The notes under the pieces are model-generated. The model saw only the letters and a program-made list of their open reading frames with translations. It did no database searches and had not been told where the DNA came from. Made by a program: the position numbers and the translations under genes. This document shows positions 1,500 through 45,897 of a stretch of DNA of 64,000 bases, in pieces (within the stretch, counting starts at the first letter, position 1; each line of letters begins with the position of its first letter). The stretch comes from Bryum argenteum (Eukaryota; Streptophyta; Bryopsida; Bryales; Bryaceae): NCBI GenBank assembly GCA_037043015.1, contig CM073325.1:2730501-2794500 (forward strand), given 5' to 3'.

Positions 1500-1605
1500 T
1501 ACTCCCTCCGTCCCATCATTATTTTCCAGTAGGTTCTCTCAAATCTACCTTGAAAGGTAGATTTGAGAGAACCTACTGGACAATCACAGTGGGACAGAGG
1601 GAGTA
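1500..1605. mobile_element. Stowaway-type MITE, copy 1
   Basis: A 106-bp near-perfect inverted repeat. Its ends read CTCCCTCCGTCCCA and TGGGACAGAGGGAG, the classic Stowaway (Tc1/mariner) terminus of plants, flanked by TA on both sides (1500-1501 and 1604-1605), the target duplication expected of this superfamily. The arms (AGTAGGTTCTCTCAAATCTACC and its complement) fold into one long hairpin with a short loop near 1553. It has no coding capacity and would have been moved by a mariner transposase in trans. A second copy of identical length lies at 22457-22562. Confidence 0.93.
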
Positions 1606-2599
1606 TTAGCCAGTTGATTCTTGAAAACACCAACTAATAAATTACAAGAAATTTTTAACTCTCAGTATAAAATGAGATAATTGTCGGGATAGTTTCACGT
1701 AAGACCGGTCGGACATGGAAACTCTAGGATGTTAGCCAGTAAGGATGAAATTATTTCCCGAACCCTGGCCGGGGCATGAGGGGTAGAGGTCCATCGGTCC
1801 CGCTCGGGCGAAGGGTCGAGTTGCGAGGGCAGTACTGTTAGTAGTGTTTGAATTAGGTGGGTTTCCTCGGGAGTGTCGCTCGCACACTGCTCCGGAATCT
1901 CTTGAGTGGTAACGGGAACCACAGTTTGGATCTTCCTGCTCTTTAGCTACATTTGCCGCTTCCTTGTAGTCCAATTAATTATTATTTTTAAATTTTTTAT
2001 CAGACAATGTACTAGTGATTGATAAACAATACATTTGATCCATAGCATCATATGCTTGGAATTTTTTTTCTTCTTTTTTTAGTAATAGGTATATATGGAG
2101 GGGTAGAGAGATGTGGGAATGGGTTGGGAGTATGGTCTCAACCAAGTTCAAAAGAAGGTGCCTAGTGGGGGTGGTGGACTAAGCCACTTAAGAGTAAGCT
2201 CAACCCTCTTATTGAAAACAATGGCTAACTAGTAGTGCAATTACTATTACTAAGGTCTCATCATATCGAGGTAGAAATAGTGAACACACAATCTGTGTTT
2301 GAGAGAGTACAATTATTTTATTAAATATTTTTAGATCACAAATGAGATCGGAAACCCAAATTATTCTAACTTGAGGCCTGTGACATAAAAACTAAAACCC
2401 CAAATATATACCGTAGAGTTATTGTTTTCTTATTGAACCTACTTACCTAGATGTGATGAGACCCTAGGCAATTACTCTACGGTGTGTCGACCATTAGTAT
2501 AAGGTAACTTACTCATTATTGGTGGAAATTTTATCATTGTAATTTTGTATAAAAATTAGTTTGTAAAAGTGAGCATATGAATATACACTCTCTAAGATT
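1606..2599. other. Intergenic, no gene recognised
   Basis: AT-rich sequence without supported genes. The segment near 2080-2230 has the look of an old retroposon, but no boundaries could be fixed. Confidence 0.5.
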
Positions 2600-3085: not shown

Positions 3086-6000
3086 CTAGGTATTAAAAAA
3101 ATTGGATACATGAGGAAGGTAGTATTACAAAAGTGCAGTAGATACAATAATAACTTACGGATAGTACAAATACCAATGGCAATATTATAGAGTATAAGTG
3201 ATATCATGTATTGTAGTGGTGATATTACAAAAAATCCTATTTTGAAGGCAAGTTCCTAAAACTTACCATGTTTTTAGAATGGCACTTCCACTATAATTGT
3301 TATTTTTGTATGTCGAATTGGCACTTGGCATAACACCACTTTACTAGAATCAAATATAAAGTTATAAGTGGTAAGAAAAATCTCAATGGAATACAATAAG
3401 ATGATTAATTGAACCTAATTCATTGAATTGATATGGAATGTCAACTTTGCTTGTGTTAACAATTGTACTAATAGCAATTAATGTAATTTATTTGCTATAT
3501 CTTCATTTGGACCACTAAAGAATGAACAATCATTACTTCATTATTGTAATACTTAACACATGAAAACCAAATTTATTAAAAGTAAAACCATATTGTAACT
3601 TTTATATATATATGCATAGATATGTAAATATCATCATTTCAAAATACTTTCCACAACCAATATTTCATTGAAGGAGTTGAAGTATGACAAATGATTTCGG
3701 ACCAAGTAAATCTAGCATTTCACATATAAGGACAATGCTTTGAATCAACCAAATAGGGTATGTAGAAGGATGGTAGCTCCTTACAAACCTTCAATTGAGT
3801 CAAAAAAATTTGAGATACACATGTTGAAAAGGTAGTCTGTGCCTTGAAGTCACTTAATACACAACATGCTCATGTTTTTCATAGTTTGTATCTTGAAATC
3901 ACTCAAGACACAATAATAGTCATGTCTTTTCTAGAATAGTGGTCATATTACATCTTCATATATAAATAATCACTATTCAACACTTAATCAAATTTTGGTG
4001 TTGAATACTATTACAAAAAGGTATGCCCACCTCTTTTGGGTCTTTAACTTTGAGCTCTACATTTGAGGCTCTATTAAAGTCATTTAAGTGCTTCAATTGG
4101 TGTTCAACTTCTCACATCCCATGAAATACCCTTGTGTTCAAGCTGAATACAAATTGCAAAAGCCGGATTCACTCTTTTATAATTATTTTGTCAAAATAGG
4201 GGTAAATTAACTCCTTGACTCAAATATTGGTAGTTAACCCCTAAAGGACCAAGCTTGTTTTTAAGTCTTCAAAACCAAAAACTGCGATCTTTGGACTGTG
4301 GAAGTTGAGTTATAATTCAATATATTTATATTTACTCCGTACTTCCAACCATAAGATCCTCATAATAACTACATGTACAAACACCATCTTAAATTTCAAT
4401 TGTTGGATCATAACGTCCAAAGTTGTTGTGAAAGGTTTTTTGCAACAATTTGAAACTCGCTCTTTTGAATTTTGGAGGCTACCCTTGTAAAATTATTAAA
4501 CTTTTTTGACTTGGGAAACTTTGGAACTCAAGTAGTGATCTTGTTATGATTTTATTTTCAAAAGAAAAAATTAGAAAAAAAAACTAAATTTCAACTTGGA
4601 GGAACTGCCCTTTTTGGGCTTGAAATTTAAGTTAATGATTTTTTTTTTTAATTTGAAATTTGTCATTACAAATTTTCACACACACACACCTTGTAGTATA
4701 GGGAGCACCTAATAAATTCTTAGGCAAGTAAATTACATTTAACCCCTTCATCTAAGCTGCTCAAAGTCAAAAACCCACTTTTTACATCCTTGGTCCTTCA
4801 CTGTTAAGAAAGTGGATTGTATTTTATCTAGTTTTACAACTATTCTACATTCCTTTGAAGTGTTGAATATAGCTTCAATATCACCACTAAAGCTCCACAA
4901 AAGCCAATTAAGCTTTTTGCTATTTCAGGCAACCTAGATAAAGAAGTAAAAATCATTGTTTCCCATTCTACAAGATGTGTATACGAGGATTTACAAAGTC
5001 AAATTTCTCAAATCGACTTTACGAGGGTGACCTTCAAATTACAAGAGAAAGCTTCAAAAATTGCAAAAAACTTGATAGATCAACTTTGAACGTTGTGATC
5101 TCACCATTGGCAACTTAGATTTAACAGTTTAAATTTGATATGATGTTTTGAATTCGCCATAGCCATCTTGGAGAGAGAAAAAATTTAAAAATTTAAAATT
5201 AAAACATAAAAAAAAAAGTAATTCACAAGTACCATTCAAGAATCAATTGCATGTCATTATGATAATTGAGGTTACTACAAATAAAATTTAAGAAACGGTT
5301 TATAAAACGGATAGAAAGTACACTTCAATCCAAAAATCAAAACATATACTCATTACGTCATAACTATTTATCCTCTTTTTGCATGTTCCCAAACCAAACA
5401 TAATGGACCCATAATGAAGCCATCATCAGTAAACGACACATAGTGTATTGGACGAACGCTGGAAATAGGTCGCCACGGTCATAGGAGCCACGGCAAACCA
5501 CTCCCTTCCCTACCAGAGGAGCTTTCGGTTTGCGGCCATCGCTTCTGCAGAAGCTCCGCTTCTTTCGCCGCTGGTGTCGTCAAAGGTAGTCGCATCCGAG
5601 CTTTTCTCTGCCAATCTCCTTGCAAGCGCACTCCTCGCACCGCACTTTCATTCGTTAGAGGAGAATTTTTAGTAAATTTACAACTTGAAACTTGAATTTC
5701 GCAACCTCTCTTGGTGTTGCAGGTGGCGACCAATTGTATTTTTTTGTTTATCGAACCAATCCATGTATTATCATTTGAAAAAGTACACCTGAGCGACCAA
5801 TTGAATTTCTCTGTTTATCGAATCAATGAATGTCTTATTATTTAAAAAGGTACATCTAAGCGACCAATTGTAAGAGTACCTGCAGAAGATTGGCATGGAG
5901 TGATTTTGAATTTCTTGTATCGAAGCAATCGATGGAGAAATACATCAGTACGAAATCAGAAAGTCTGTCCAGAGAAACGACAAAATGGAGTGGATTTCAG

Positions 6001-9825: not shown

Positions 9826-10195
9826 TTAACCCTTAAACGCCCATGGGGTCTAAAACGGGCAGCCCGAAATTGGATCACAACATCTTTTGGACTTGGGCAT
9901 CATGAATAGTGCACTTTTTGAACTTGGGCATCATGAATGATCCAATCAATGATGAGCTTGCAACCTCCTACAAGGTTATGTACAACCCCAACCTACCTAC
10001 CCCTATCCTTTCAAAGCACGAAATCATTCATACAAATTGTGATTTGAATTGTGAAATTTCACTTTTTGAATGCATCACAAGAAGGTGACCAATTTGGCAT
10101 CAAAATATAAGTGAAAAGTTGAGTACAATGAGAGCTACAGAGAAGATTCTGTTGGAAGGTGACCCCTCGGGTCACCTTGGGCGTTTAAGGGTTAA
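9826..10195 (+). mobile_element. TTAA-flanked MITE (piggyBac-like), copy A
   Basis: Flanked by TTAA at 9826-9829 and 10192-10195. The element (9830-10191, 362 bp) starts CCCTTAAACGCCCA and ends with its exact complement, a 14-bp perfect terminal inverted repeat. Its interior is homologous to the copy at 38757-39087 (shared ACTTGGGCATCATGAATGATCC, GAGCTTGCAACCTCCTACAA). Compared with that copy it carries a partial duplication of the CTTGGGCATCATGAAT segment at about 9893-9940. A TTAA target duplication and 5'-CCC ends are the hallmarks of piggyBac-type elements. Non-coding, so non-autonomous. Confidence 0.88.
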
Positions 10196-14095: not shown

Positions 14096-14399
14096 CGTCC
14101 AATATATTCCACATAATGTTTCACCAAACAATCTGAAGCATTATCTTGGTATATGCTCTAACAATCGTTCAGTGAACCTTGGAATATACACTTTTGCGAA
14201 ATAAAGTGAAGCAACGTCTTGGTATATGCTCCGACAACAATAGGTTCTTGAATCAATGAATGCTGCAAATTTGACGTGTAAAAGTGGTCATGTCTAGGTC
14301 TGATTTTTTGGGGGAGCATATTGTTGGCCTTCACATTTATAATGTCTCCCCATACACTGCACATCATGTATGCAAATCGAGCAAATGGTTTCATTGAGA

Positions 14400-16010
14400 T
14401 CTCTCCTTGTTAGTAGAAAGCAAGTAGAAGAAGCTACTTTAGAGAAGTTGAGGAGGGGTGAGAGAACTAGAAATGTTGCTAGAGAGTTACAGGTCCCAAA
14501 GTTGGATTGCAAAATTTTGTAAGCAACATTTGAGAGAATTGAGTGATATCAATCAAAGTTTTGGTGGTAGGCCAAAATGTAAAGTGCAGTTGATCGTAGA
14601 GCTTGTGTCAAAGCAATCACGGTGGGTGGCTTAGAAAATGCACACAAAGTTGAAACTTACTTGAGGGAAGAGCTTCATGTTGGTATGAGCAATAAAATTG
14701 TAAGGAGAGTGTTACGAAAAGCACGTTTGAAATGTAAAGTGAAGCTCACACTTCTTCAAGTTAACCCTTAAGCGGGCCGAATGTCGAAAAACGACATTTT
14801 GGATGACAGAAACTTTGGAGAGCCATAACTTCTTCATCCGGACTCCGTTTTGGACGAAATCACTTGGGTTGGGTCCCAAATCAAGTCTAGTTCATGTTCT
14901 AAGAATCTCAGACCCATACAATGAAGTATGAATTAATGGCATGCATTTCAGTGACAGCAGCCTAGTTTTAGACATTTTTTCCTTTCTAAAATTTAAGGCA
15001 GTTTTCACCATTGCAGGGCCATAATTTGCACAAAGAAATTTTTCTCATGGTTTTTTTTTGTTCAAGGATGCTACTGAGATGAAGGTGAACAACATTCTAA
15101 TTGGTGACTTTTTCATTGCAATAAGTCTAATGGTAGCATTTTCACTTTAAAGTGAAAATGATGAAATTATCTGATCATTTTTGAGTATTAATACATTATG
15201 ATCTCGCAATCTATGAAGCCTCATGACTCAAAATTTGACCCACATGATGTTCAATATGTGTACGACAAGATTGTACGGTTGAGATTTGGATAACACACTT
15301 TTACCTCCACCTATGACAATGTTTTTGAGGATGTGTTCATTTTACTACAAATGAGTCAAACCATTTAGGGGTTAAGTGACTATTAGAATATGCTAAACGT
15401 CATTGCCATTGGAATGAAGATGATTGGGATCGTGTATTATTCTCTGATGAAACAAAATTCGACGGATTTTGCTCTGATGGTCGCAGTTGGTGTTGGTTTC
15501 GTTATGAAGAGAGTAGAAGTGCATGAATGGTACAACAAATTGTCAAGTTTAGAGGTGGGGGGGGTGATAATGTGGGGTTGCATGACTTCATGTGACCTTG
15601 GTATGATGTGTAGGATTGAGGGAAGAATGGATCAATACATGTATAGAGAAATTTTAGAGCGAGAGTTGATTCATACCCTTCATGCATACAATTTGGATTT
15701 TGCCAATTTGATTTTTCAACATGATAATGACCTGAAACATTCATCCAAGAGTGTGCGCCCTTACCTGAATTTGCAAGAATTTGTTGTTTTGAAGTGGCTG
15801 GCGTAATCTCCAAACTTGAATCCAATGGAATACTTGGAGGCAACTCCAAAACGCCGACTAAACCAATATAAGAGACCCCCAAAAGGAATGTTAGAATTGT
15901 GGGAGCGTGTGGAGGATTGTTGGGCTTCAATTATTCCCAATGAATGTCAGAGCTTGTATAGGAGCATGCCTAAGCGCATTGCAGCCGTTATAGCTCCTAA
16001 GCGTAGGTAA
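14400..16010 (+). pseudogene. Tc1-like (DD34E) transposase relic, split by an insertion
   Basis: Remnant of a cut-and-paste transposase. 14400-14760 holds the DNA-binding half: a helix-turn-helix segment (RRGERTRNVARELQVPK) and a GRPK motif typical of the Tc1 linker. 15376-16010 holds the catalytic half: DRVLFSDETKF with the first Asp, IMWGC, FQHDNDLKHSS with the second Asp, SPNLNPMEYL with the Glu, and the C-terminal SMPKRIAAVI. Exactly 34 residues separate the second Asp from the Glu, giving DD34E as in animal and fungal Tc1, not the DD39D usual for plant mariners. Damage: stops near 14520 and 14634, a TGA near 15523, a frameshift in the G run near 15553-15560, and TAA at 15804 where relatives have Gln. 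The two halves are separated by the TTAA element 14761-15375. Terminal repeats were not found. Confidence 0.92.
14761..15375 (+). mobile_element. TTAA-flanked MITE (piggyBac-like) inserted in the Tc1 relic
   Basis: TTAA at 14761-14764 and 15372-15375 bracket a 607-bp insert that begins CCCTTAAGCGG and ends CCATTTAGGGG, an imperfect inverted repeat with the same CCCYTAA start as the other TTAA elements. Deleting the insert and one TTAA joins the two halves of the Tc1 transposase, so the boundaries are set independently by the host reading frame. The interior is the intact reference for the dispersed repeats at 2600-3085 and 13590-14095. No coding capacity. Confidence 0.88.
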
Positions 16011-21776: not shown

Positions 21777-22456
21777 GCTGTGGAACTCATAGATCACCCA
21801 CCATCACTAGCCCCCCAAAACAGCCACCCTCATCAAATCCTCACCACAATACACTCACGTCTCGCAATCCGTCATCATCTCCACCCCAACACCCTCGCAG
21901 ATTATTCCCTACTGAAACTCCCTCCTAGCAATAAGTGCGTTGCCCTGACAAAGGAACCATTTGTGAAGGCGGTGATGAAGCTTATATACCTGACGGAACA
22001 TAACCATGGAACACGTACTGAGCCTGCAACTGTGATCGGAGGAGAACAATGAATGAGGAGACCGACTGTGAGGGGGTAGAGGCTGTGAGGATTGCATGGC
22101 TGGGAGAGGCGACGAGACCGGATGTGGATGAAGTTCCAAATCCGTCAACGTTCGTCCATATCCGTCCATCTCCGTCCATCCGAATCTACGACGTAAGAAG
22201 ATACAAGAGGCGGCCAGTTCTTGTGCGTTACGTTGATCATACGGTAGCGAGCAGTGACCGCTGTGATTGGATTCTGCCATGGACGATCCACCCCTTGATG
22301 GACGGAGACTGCACCCATAAACACCTTTTTCATTCTCATTAAATAATGTTAGATAAGGATCCACCTTTGCATTTTTAGTCGGTCACATTACTGCCCCAAA
22401 ATATTTTATGTTTTTTTAGGGGAATTTTCAGACTGGGGAACACACTTGTAATATTA
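21777..22456 (-). promoter_or_regulatory. Upstream region of the PMI1-like gene
   Basis: About 680 bp between the chosen start codon and the Stowaway MITE. It should hold the 5' leader and core promoter, but no TATA box or leader intron can be assigned with confidence. Reading frames here on both strands lack recognisable domains. Confidence 0.4.
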
Positions 22457-22562
22457 TACTCCCTCTGTCCCATTTATATTGTCGAGTAGGTTCTCCCAAA
22501 TCTACCTCGCAATGTAGATTTGAGTGAATCTATTGGACAATATAAATGGGACGGAGGGAGTA
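22457..22562. mobile_element. Stowaway-type MITE, copy 2
   Basis: A 106-bp inverted repeat, the same length as the copy at 1500-1605, with ends CTCCCTCTGTCCCA and TGGGACGGAGGGAG and TA duplications at 22457-22458 and 22561-22562. The central arms share TAGGTTCTC-CAAATCTACC with copy 1. It sits about 0.7 kb upstream of the PMI1-like start codon. Non-coding. Confidence 0.94.
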
Positions 22563-23992
22563 TCAAATAGGGGATCGATTGTAAACACGGGGAAGGGAAA
22601 ACATCATCTCAACATCACATCAGAAAGCAGGTACGAGAAGTTTCAAATAAATTTGAGCTTGTTGAGATGCCGATTCTCTTCTTCATGAAGTCTTTGATCC
22701 TATCACTTGGAGGTGCTTTTGTGCGACTAGTTCCCTATTTTTTGAATATTTTGTGATTATTTCCCTATTTGGAAACATTTTGCGAAATAGTTCCCCTATT
22801 TTTGAACAATCAATAAGTCTCTTTTGCATGACTGAAAGGATGTCTCATTAATGCCATGTAGAAACTTTGAATACGACATTCTCACAATTGGTACACATTT
22901 TAAAATAAAAGAACTATAATTTTGAATAAGGATAGGTAACAAAATCTACTGCTAAAGTCTCATGAAGAAAAATTACATATGTAATAAATAAATATTTTTA
23001 CCCCGTTCATGTATAAAAATCCGCAATCAAGCTTCGAAAAACACAAGGATATTTAAGGGATTGAACTTCTTAGCAACACACTACACAAGAGTTGTTGATT
23101 AGTGTTATGTGAAAATTAGTCTTATCCAAATATTATTGTTAATTACTGAATATCAAACATTACTGTCCCTTCTTCTCAACGGGCATGAGATTAGCTTTCA
23201 ACTTAAGATGCCATTGCTCTAACTTTTTCCTTTCCTTGGAGCTACCAACCCTGCAAAATCTCCCTCTTTCCACAGTTTCACATTTAGGGCTCATTTTCAG
23301 AGATAATCAGTGTTAACACACTAAATACCATTGTTGTTAGGCCTTGTGGGCATATCATCAAGGGTAGGTCGAACGGACACTTTATTCACGCCAACCCCTA
23401 CGGGTCTGGTGTTCTTCTTCTTTTAACACACTAAGTCAAAGTGCGAAATCTACTGTTTGGGTTTATGATTAATGTTTACAACACTAACTAACAATCCTTC
23501 CATAGTGAAAAAGTATACCGTCTCCACCAAGTGCACCACCCCCTAAAATATCTTATTCCACCACATCCCTAAGGAATAAGTCACTTTCGCTCACACCTTT
23601 CCGCCCTTCAAATACACACTTCGCAACATCACGAATCTCAAAACAAAGATTGCTATCTCAGCGAGGCAGTGATTTTACTACCTTGATTCAACTGTTTGGT
23701 ACATTGTTTTTATTGAAAAGAAAGATTGCTGTCACAGTAAGCATGTACAGATACGATTGAGAGTACGTGCTCTAGTTGATTGATTTTTAATATACAATCT
23801 CCCTCCTAACTTGTGATTAGAATCATAAACAGTTTGCTTGTGGAATGTTCACATGTACTGTACACATTCAACATCAATGTCGATCGCTGATGCCTCCAAC
23901 GATGCGGAGGGAGGGGTTGAATCAATGATATGGTGGGGACTGACAGGATCGGACGAAGGAGCGAGGACAGTTATGTTGCAAGCTAGTGTAAG
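22563..23992. other. Intergenic DNA between the Stowaway MITE and the CACTA element
   Basis: AT-rich, no gene recognised, apart from the SINE-like fragment at 23325-23425. Confidence 0.5.
23325..23425 (+). mobile_element. SINE-like 3' fragment
   Basis: Shares with the 3' half of the SINE at 39372-39905 the order GGCATA-ATC, AAGGGTAGGTCGAA, ACACTTTATTCACGCC, then a GGT-TGG-GTT segment and a TTCTTCTTCTTTT tail. The tRNA-like 5' part is missing. Confidence 0.55.
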
Positions 23993-38756: not shown

Positions 38757-39087
38757 TTAACCCTTAAACGTCAGGCTATACGGATTTGGGCAGCCCAGTA
38801 TTGGATCACAGCATCTTTTGGACTTGGGCATCATGAATGATCCAATCAATGATGAGCTTGCAACCTCCTACAAGTATTGTACAACCCCAACCTACCTACC
38901 ACAATCCTTTCAAAGCACAAAATCACTCATACAAATTGTGATTTGAATTCTAAAATTTCACTTTTTGAATGCATCAGACGAAGGTGACCAGTTTGACATC
39001 AAAATATAAGTTGAGTACATTGAGAGCTACAGAGGAGATTCTGTTGGAAAATGACCCCTTGGGTCACCTTGGGCGTTTAAGGGTTAA
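38757..39087 (+). mobile_element. TTAA-flanked MITE (piggyBac-like), copy B
   Basis: TTAA at 38757-38760 and 39084-39087. The element (38761-39083, 323 bp) starts CCCTTAAACGTC and ends GGGCGTTTAAGGG. The interior is about the same as copy A at 9826-10195 but lacks its internal duplication. It carries the same TGACCCCT--GGGTCACC subterminal hairpin near the right end. Two independent insertions of one family, each with TTAA on both sides, confirm the boundaries. Confidence 0.92.
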
Positions 39088-39371: not shown

Positions 39372-39905
39372 GCACCACAAGCCTTAGCTTGGTGGGTAGA
39401 GCTCATCGCTCCAATGAGGAGGTCGTGCCGGTTCTATCCCCCTTGCTAGGGACTAGCAGTCTAGCACTAGTGGCCAGAGTTGTCGGCTATGTAGGGACTA
39501 GCACTAGTGGCCAGGGTTGTCGTGTGCGACAAACTTGACACGACGTCGAACACGACATGTAGACAGGCAACAAACCCTTTGTTTGAGAATATACCACATT
39601 CGTAGAATATACTTAGAATATTCTAGAATATGCCAACATATTCTTGGACATTCCAGCATATTTCAGTCAAATTGTTTAACGTACGCGACGAACACACGAC
39701 TAACACGACAAACATTGCCGAAAATGTGTCGAAGAAGACAACCCTGCTAGTGGCTATGTAGGAACTAGCTTAGTGTTCACCTCGAAAGGAGTTAGTAGTC
39801 CCGCCATTGGTGTGCTGACCTCCAGGCATACATCCAAAGATAGGTCAAATAAACACTTTATTCACACCGACCTTCCAAATAGGTTGGAGTTTCTCTTCTT
39901 CTTCT
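39372..39905 (+). mobile_element. tRNA-derived SINE, interrupted by a hAT-type MITE
   Basis: The 5' end has tRNA-like RNA polymerase III promoter boxes: A box TAGCTTGGTGGGTAGAGC at about 39385-39402 and B box GGTTCTATCCC at 39430-39440, about 45 bp apart as in tRNA genes. The body contains a short direct duplication (GGGACTAGCA---CTAGTGGCCAG at about 39459 and 39494). The 3' end carries ACACTTTATTCACACCG and a TTCTCTTCTTCTTCT tail. Minus the 243-bp insertion, the element is about 290 bp, normal for a plant SINE. Related 3' fragments occur at 8490, 23325, 59917-60045 (minus) and 62925. Confidence 0.75.
39504..39754. mobile_element. hAT-type MITE with 8-bp target duplication
   Basis: The element (39512-39746, 235 bp) has ends CAGGGTTGTCGTGTGCGACA and, complemented, CAGGGTTGTCTTCTTCGACA, a 20-bp inverted repeat with three mismatches. 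It is flanked by a perfect 8-bp duplication CTAGTGGC (39504-39511 and 39747-39754). CAGGG ends with 8-bp duplications define the hAT superfamily. It sits inside the SINE, and one copy of the 8 bp belongs to the SINE. Non-coding. Confidence 0.93.
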
Positions 39906-44962: not shown

Positions 44963-45897
44963 TTAACCCCTAAAACTCTAGGAAAACCGATTCGGTTTTC
45001 TAAGATTTCGGGCAGCTCATTTTAAGGAATCAAATTGATATTATTGCCTAAGATTTTTACTGGATGCTCCCCATACTGTAATGTGTATGTGGTAAAATTT
45101 GCAAAGCCAAATTTTAATTTTATAACCTCAATCTAGAAATTTTAGGTTTCAAGTCCAAAACGGGCAGTTTAAAATTTTAAAAATTTAAGTATTTTTTTTG
45201 GAAATATGTTCATTACCGAATTACTATTCAAACTCCAAAGTATCTGAAGTCCAAAAGTTTACCAATTTTACAAGGGCAGCCTCCAAAACTTTCAAAAACA
45301 ATCTTCACAATTTCTACTAATTTTACAATTTTTTCTTTCAAAAATTGCCAAATCTTGAGATTTTGGGTTTTTTCCAAGATTGTTTTTTTTCAAAATTCAC
45401 ATTCTCATAGATGCACCTACTCACCGTCCAGATTTTCTTCAAACTAAATATATCATATGTGGTGCTTGTTTTACTATATTGTTGTTTTTAGACCTTCTTT
45501 GATAAAATAATTTACATCAAGGTCAAAAAGTGGAATTGGTCTCTAAAATTTTGCATGAGCATACCCAACTTGATTACCTACATGAAATAAAATGATGGAA
45601 ATATGTTTGGAGTAACAATCATCAAGTTGCCCTTGGCACCATTTAGACAATGCCTCTCACGGAGCGTCAAAAAAAAGTGTTGGTCAAACTTTGATTGTTA
45701 CGATCTCACAAATGAAAAACATCCAACGGTTGAAATTTCGACCAGTCCTTTGTATACAAGTTAGGTACAAGATCTTACGGTTCAAAGTATAAAACCAAAA
45801 AAAAATGTTTCTCCGTTTCCCCATTTCCCAACGAAGGTGAAAAATGGCAGTTTTTGGTTCTAGAGGTCGAGGAAACCCCTAGATGTTTAGGGGTTAA
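44963..45897 (+). mobile_element. TTAA-flanked element (piggyBac-like), large copy C
   Basis: TTAA at 44963-44966 and 45894-45897 enclose 927 bp starting CCCCTAAAACTCTAGG and ending CCTAGATGTTTAGGGG, a 16-bp inverted repeat with two adjacent mismatches. The interior differs from copies A and B and from the 14.8-kb insert, so it is a separate subfamily with the same target site and CCCYTAA-type ends. No reading frame of note. Confidence 0.83.

What the first reader, a model, noticed from the sequence alone, without database searches (positions are those of the whole stretch)
9826..10195. TTAA-specific MITE family with CCCYTAA ends in a plant genome
Four insertions in this window (9826, 14761, 38757, 44963) are bracketed by TTAA and start with CCCTTAA or CCCCTAA. 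Two share interiors; one is verified by the reading frame it interrupts. TTAA duplication with 5'-CCC ends is the piggyBac signature, a superfamily scarcely reported from land plants.
Basis: partly seen in the sequence, partly recalled or inferred. Interest (0 to 1): 0.72.

Follow-up and report, generated by a model that had tools for sequence, protein, structure and literature searches.

The report
Moss genome full of piggyBac transposons
Short mobile DNA pieces in this moss chromosome belong to the piggyBac transposon group, known mainly from animals, and the same genome carries matching full-length transposons, some in near-identical copies, that look recently active.

Summary
Four elements are bounded by TTAA and end in CCCYTAA; a fifth, decayed one lies at 4234-4807. 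The genome (258.8 Mb) holds 23,184 TTAACCCYTAAA ends against 401 for the reversed pattern. A piggyBac transposase search (PF13843) gave 775 candidates; 116 were scored and 116 passed the cut-off. Full-length elements of 4.5-5.9 kb have ends like those of E1 and E4. Paralogous empty sites are undoubled. Twin 5.7-kb copies are flanked by TTAA/TTAA and ATAA/ATAA, so the duplication is 4 bp. LEAFY, 100 of 105 residues identical to PDB 4bhk, makes the host a moss.

New here: a palindrome centred 25 bp inside the left end, in different letters from family to family, where the moth transposase's C-terminal dimer docks. Seven transposase domains, picked for equal scores, differ at 0-2 of 1149 bases: recent movement.

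The superfamily is known. I saw no report of native piggyBac in a moss in the listings and passages of ten searches of an open-access library. Transposition was not tested.

The parts
9826..10195 (-). E1, 370-bp piggyBac MITE bounded by TTAA; its right side corresponds to the left (transposase-upstream) end of full-length elements
10156..10178 (-). E1 subterminal palindrome AAGGTGACCCCTCGGGTCACCTT, centred at nt 29 from the outer edge of TTAA (bp 25 of the element); proposed docking site of the transposase C-terminal dimer
9856..9866 (.). CGGGCAGCCCG motif of the E1 right-end type, shared with the right ends of several full-length elements
14761..15375 (+). E2, 615-bp MITE inside a Tc1-like transposase frame; empty sites found in paralogues; no full-length partner identified
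14780..14798 (+). E2 subterminal palindrome AATGTCGAAAAACGACATT centred at nt 29
38757..39087 (-). E3, 331-bp MITE of the E1 family
44963..45897 (+). E4, 935-bp MITE whose two ends resemble the ends of the 5.7-kb elements L157/L158
44982..45000 (+). E4 subterminal palindrome GAAAACCGATTCGGTTTTC centred at nt 29
4234..4807 (-). Fifth, decayed E4-type element: one intact TTAACCCCTAAA end at 4234, the other end decayed (TTAACAGTGAAGG, complement strand)

Best explanation
The elements are non-autonomous piggyBac transposons (MITEs) of a moss. Shown: 4-bp target duplication, normally TTAA; CCCYTAA ends; a large resident population of piggyBac transposase genes; full-length elements with like ends; near-identical transposase copies on different chromosomes. 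Inferred from the moth piggyBac structure: a dimer of the resident transposase holds both element ends, its C-terminal zinc-finger pair docks on the palindrome 25 bp inside the left end, and the element is cut out through a TTAA hairpin and joined to a new TTAA. E1 and E4 have one left-type and one right-type end and so can borrow the enzyme; for E2 this is inferred from its ends alone.
For: PF13843: 775 candidates, 116 scored, 116 over cut-off, best 7.4e-82; 0 of 14 control genomes. Profile of 28 rows (26 loci) against PDB: piggyBat 3.8e-52, T. ni piggyBac 1.9e-47; Asp columns 147, 226 and 339 invariant in 28 of 28 rows. Both ends found in 7 of 12 longer transposase regions read. E1 right 50 nt against the L080 left end: 30 of 50 identical; E1 left against the L080 right end: 33 of 50. 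E4 ends against the L158 ends: 49/80 and 51/80, swapped control 37/85 and 40/91. 41 of 41 E1-family copies bounded by TTAA, no pattern outside. No insert in 8 of 8 fetched paralogues. ATAA direct repeat around L157 and TTAA around its twin L158. Left-end palindrome at nt 29 in six full-length elements: 40 of 60 positions complementary, right ends 12 of 60, 0 of 5000 shuffles reach 40.
Against: No full-length element with exactly the E1 or E2 ends was found; E1 matches L080 at family level only, and E2 has no identified full-length partner. The 41 copies were the best-scoring ones and the query contained TTAA, so alone is biased; the 88.2% figure is less so. Three of 8 empty sites read TCAA or GTAA rather than TTAA. 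Single ends often lack a perfect palindrome: 26 of 37 and 28 of 35; L073 and L076 have only 5 of 10 complementary positions. The centre had been noticed before in ends that include L080, so one search is not an independent test; one search used new ends. In L158 the 831-residue frame stops shortly before a Cys-rich motif lying in the same frame, so that copy may need an intron or may be defective. Transcription and transposition are untested.
Confidence: 0.96

Rival explanations
1. The MITEs belong to Kolobok, another superfamily with TTAA duplications.
For: Kolobok also duplicates TTAA (PMC9587614, passage).
Against: The same passage gives Kolobok termini as 5'-RR and YY-3'; these are 5'-CCC..GGG-3'. 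Full-length elements with such ends carry piggyBac transposase. I did not search the genome for a Kolobok transposase.
Confidence: 0.01
2. The duplication is TA (Tc1/mariner) or a 3-bp TAA/TTA (PIF/Harbinger), and TTAA only looks like 4 bp because it is a palindrome.
For: TTAA is palindromic, so most copies cannot tell 2 from 4 bp by themselves.
Against: One copy (L157) is flanked by ATAA on both sides as a direct repeat, which fits a 4-bp duplication around CCCC..GGGG. Outer T and A are fixed in 41 of 41 copies, and 88.2% of exact ends carry TTAA.
Confidence: 0.01
3. The piggyBac population is a relic: the bursts are over and no enzyme now works.
For: 23 of 116 scored domains contain a stop (my count of the listing, which holds the best-scoring part only); E2-like and E4-like copies in the window are 25-30% diverged; transcription is untested.
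Against: Seven transposase domains on five contigs differ at 0-2 of 1149 bases and four of them are identical (picked because their scores were equal or nearly so); two 5.7-kb copies are 99.84% identical with unrelated flanks; the youngest MITE copy read is 0.27% from the family consensus; third-codon-position changes dominate.
Confidence: 0.3

Closest known systems
piggyBac of the moth Trichoplusia ni (PDB 6x67/6x68; PMC7351741, passages seen)
   Same: Transposase domain with the DDD residues (E 4.6e-30), C-terminal Cys-rich domain, TTAA target, CCC ends (moth CCC recalled), unequal left and right ends, palindromic repeat centred near bp 25 of the left end.
   Different: The moss elements read are 4.5-5.9 kb with frames up to 1,187 residues. 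The palindrome letters differ between moss families. In the moth the right-end repeat lies further in; in the moss a weaker signal near nt 50 of some ends may be its counterpart.
piggyBat of the bat Myotis lucifugus (PDB 9c0f)
   Same: Best profile match in the PDB, E 3.8e-52.
   Different: Mammalian host; its ends were not compared here.
PiggyBac MITEs listed for angiosperms (PMC10004981, passage)
   Same: Short non-autonomous elements assigned to the same superfamily in plants.
   Different: The passage seen names no transposase; here full-length relatives are in the same genome. I did not see the primary reports.
Kolobok (PMC9587614, passages)
   Same: TTAA duplication.
   Different: Termini RR..YY instead of CCC..GGG; different transposase.

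Membership tests
piggyBac superfamily | DDE_Tnp_1_7 (PF13843) transposase in full-length relatives | tested here: met
   116 of 116 scored candidates (of 775) over cut-off; Pfam on two full frames E 2e-78 and 2.1e-79
piggyBac superfamily | Catalytic Asp triad aligned with T. ni piggyBac | tested here: met
   Asp columns 147, 226 and 339 invariant in 28 of 28 rows (26 loci), fourth Asp (342) at least 90%; aligned to 6x67. That these are D268, D346 and D447 is recalled.
piggyBac superfamily | C-terminal Cys-rich (cross-brace) domain | tested here: met
   Six-Cys pattern CX2CX7CX2CX4-5CX3C in 6 of 7 frames inspected; L071 lacks the last part; in L158 a Cys motif lies beyond the frame's stop
piggyBac superfamily | 4-bp target duplication, TTAA | tested here: met
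   one ATAA case (L157)
piggyBac superfamily | Element ends 5'-CCC..GGG-3' | tested here: met
   41 of 41 E1-family copies have CCC; one of 41 has an altered GGG
piggyBac superfamily | Footprint-free excision | not testable with these tools
   Needs excision products; the empty sites are paralogues, not excision products
Kolobok | Termini 5'-RR..YY-3' | tested here: not met
   Termini are CCC..GGG; definition from PMC9587614
Tc1/mariner (Stowaway) | 2-bp TA duplication | tested here: not met
   ATAA direct repeat around L157
PIF/Harbinger (Tourist) | 3-bp TAA/TTA duplication | tested here: not met
   definition from PMC10004981

The most novel reading that the evidence does not exclude
A moss hosts a native, recently and perhaps still active piggyBac radiation of several lineages and more than ten thousand element ends. 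Across these lineages, and between moss and moth, what is conserved at the transposase docking site is a geometry rather than a sequence: a palindrome centred 25 bp inside the left end whose letters change family by family. If so, each family carries its own private key in a shared lock position, which would keep many piggyBac lineages apart in one genome.
Probability: 0.55. Interest if true: 0.78.

Novelty: new member of a known kind. Interest (0 to 1): 0.64.

Why it matters
[quoted passage not shown] A moss with some 23,000 piggyBac-type ends and near-identical transposase copies suggests that such pipelines could misfile or miss a major superfamily in bryophytes. It also offers a native, TTAA-targeting transposon for moss genetics, and a natural set of left ends for testing how transposase and palindrome letters co-evolve.

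Tried and rejected
Considered and rejected: Kolobok (termini), Tc1/mariner and PIF/Harbinger (duplication length), chance. I first took TTAACCCCAAATTCC, upstream of the domain in L041, L042, L045, L071 and L072, for a left end. It encodes LTPNS, which is part of the longer transposase frame in L076 and L080, so I do not count it as an end. Left ends were not found for L071, L072, L075, L077 and L079 (5 of 12 longer regions). A second centre of symmetry near nt 50 gave only a secondary peak (0.343 complementary), not claimed. The E2 partner was not found. Rfam and tRNA scans of the window gave nothing. Structure prediction was not accepted, so no fold search was run.

Rows dropped or selected: 4 partial matches. 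L157 left out of the left-end test as a twin of L158. Four of the 30 fetched domains (L044, L047, L053, L060, each with a stop) left out of alignment A1, which holds the other 26 plus longer C-terminal pieces of two of the same loci (L073 = L048, L076 = L056), 28 rows. In the codon-position count one pair (L045-L064) was out of register and is included in the totals. The eight domains L149-L156 were picked because their scores were equal or nearly so; one (L156) proved different at 271-273 of 1149 bases. In one search only the 116 best of 775 candidates were scored, and only 40 of 3,452.

Full report
Observation. Nine exact copies of that 11-mer lie in 64 kb; allowing one mismatch there are 10, against a shuffle mean of 2.36, and 0 of 100 shuffles reach 10. 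E1 and E3 share 90.7% over 280 bp; E4 has a 70% relative at 4463-4768, which on inspection is a decayed fifth element, 4234-4807.

Copies. A search with E1 scored 40 of 3,452 candidates in the window's own genome. In the 40 loci read I found 41 full-length copies (4 partial matches dropped): 41 of 41 have TTAA on both sides, and the ten bases outside carry 0.01-0.16 bits each, i.e. next to nothing. The query contained TTAA and the copies were the best-scoring, so a fairer test is the pattern count: CCCTTAAACGCCCA occurs 3,098 times (reversed control 0), and 2,733 of these, 88.2%, are preceded by TTAA. TTAACCCYTAAA occurs 23,184 times against 401 for the reversed pattern. Mean divergence of the 41 copies from their consensus is 2.3%, median 1.6%, minimum 0.27%.

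Duplication length. E2 sits in a frame that reads like a Tc1-type transposase (by eye; no Pfam match for the short pieces). With the flanks joined, by my count 36 of 40 scored matches elsewhere run straight across; two of the other four are the window's own halves and two stop short of the site. In 8 paralogues read, 8 are continuous and the site reads TTAA in 5, TCAA in 2, GTAA in 1, never doubled. Two 5.7-kb full-length elements on C8 and C4 are 99.84% identical and their identity stops at the ends: C4 is flanked by TTAA and TTAA, C8 by ATAA and ATAA. ATAA is not a palindrome, so this direct repeat fixes the duplication at 4 bp.

Transposase. PF13843 gave 775 candidates; 116 were scored and all 116 passed the curated cut-off, while 0 of 14 control genomes matched. 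By my count of that listing 93 of 116 have no stop in the matched part; these are the best-scoring ones. The 30 domains fetched fall into seven clusters at 60% identity, with a minimum pairwise identity of 35%. Three Asp columns are invariant in 28 of 28 rows, 26 loci, and align with T. ni piggyBac. A profile of the 28 rows finds piggyBat and T. ni piggyBac in the PDB and nothing else at E 0.001. The C-terminal six-Cys pattern is present in 6 of 7 frames read.

Full-length partners. I read 12 longer transposase regions. Six have TTAACCC at both ends: L073 (5,286 bp), L074 (5,851), L076 (4,469), L078 (5,412), L080 (5,336) and L158 (5,701); L157, the twin of L158, has ATAA in place of TTAA. In the other five no left end was found. 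E1's right end matches the L080 left end and E1's left end the L080 right end (30/50 and 33/50, including the first 20 and 18 bases without a difference); E4's ends match those of L158 in the same polarity (49/80, 51/80; swapped 37/85, 40/91). E2 has no identified partner.

Left-end geometry. I first saw the palindrome in ends already read: 11 of 37 non-redundant ends have one with arms of six or more, three of them variants of the E1 end, against a shuffle mean of 1.49 and a maximum of 6 in 200. I then took a new set not chosen by family: the first 60 places, all on C1; 35 distinct sequences remain after clustering. Scanned for a centre of two-fold symmetry, they peak at nt 29.0 counted from the outer T of TTAA (0.387 complementary; 500 shuffles reach at most 0.321 there and at most 0.368 at any centre). 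Taking the best perfect palindrome of each sequence, 7 of 35 have arms of six or more: five are centred at exactly 29.0, with five different sequences, and two at 50.5 and 51; 28 of 35 have none. In the six distinct full-length elements the end upstream of the transposase frame has 40 of 60 complementary positions at that centre, the downstream end 12 of 60; 0 of 5,000 shuffles reach 40 (some of these ends were in the set that first suggested the centre, and L073 and L076 have only 5 of 10). E1, E2 and E4 each have it at one end; E2's other end has one at 30.5. Nt 29 is bp 25 of the element. In the moth transpososome the C-terminal domain dimer binds bp 17-33 of the left end, centred at about bp 25 (PMC7351741, passages). 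I infer that the moss transposases dock in the same place; the position was measured here, the docking was not.

Activity. Of eight further transposase domains picked for equal or nearly equal scores, seven, on contigs C1, C2, C4, C8 and C9, differ at 0-2 of 1,149 bases and four are identical. Within the cluster that includes L080, changes fall 553/448/1,491 on codon positions 1/2/3 (one pair was out of register), as expected for a protein kept in use.

Host. LEAFY is found at one place, two exons; its longer exon piece is identical at 100 of 105 residues to PDB 4bhk, FLORICAULA/LEAFY homolog 1, which I recall to be from the moss Physcomitrium, and scores 238 bits there against 168 for 2vy1, recalled as Arabidopsis LEAFY. 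With PMI1/PMIR C-terminal domain matches in the window and TTTAGGG arrays near the end of C5, the host is a moss. The species is not known to me.

Literature. In the listings and passages of ten searches of the held open-access library I saw no report of native piggyBac in a moss; I opened passages of eight papers and did not read any whole. In PMC10619864 the word is 'piggybacking'. PMC5505980 (passages) treats piggyBac only as a moth tool not yet tested in P. patens. Subscription papers, Repbase and the 2017 piggyBac review (not held) were not seen, so an earlier report is possible.

Noticed in passing
contig C1 of the genome (44.1 Mb): C1 is poor in these elements: by my count of the listings 56 of 3,098 CCCTTAAACGCCCA ends and 5 of 116 scored transposases on 17% of the genome. 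A sex or heterochromatic chromosome is one guess.
   Followed up: partly
window 14343-16010: A decayed Tc1-like transposase (by eye: SDETKF, SPNLNP motifs) with dozens of related copies in this moss genome; no Pfam match in the short pieces tried.
   Followed up: partly
window 1500-1606 and 22451-22568: Short hairpins with TACTCCCTCCGTCCC or close to it at the ends, which I recall as the Stowaway end sequence of angiosperms.
   Followed up: no
L029, L039, L074, L077: Neighbouring elements overlap by just the four bases TTAA, as if a TTAA at or near one element's edge had been the next one's target.
   Followed up: partly
L003, L009, L098, L104, L128 and E4 (window 44963-45897): A GGGCAG motif recurs about 46-54 nt inside otherwise different ends, and at about nt 31-41 in E1-type right ends.
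   Followed up: no
window 39376-39500: A stretch resembling a tRNA-derived SINE head (AGCCTTAGCTTGGTGGGTAGAGCTC) downstream of E3; seen by eye only.
   Followed up: no
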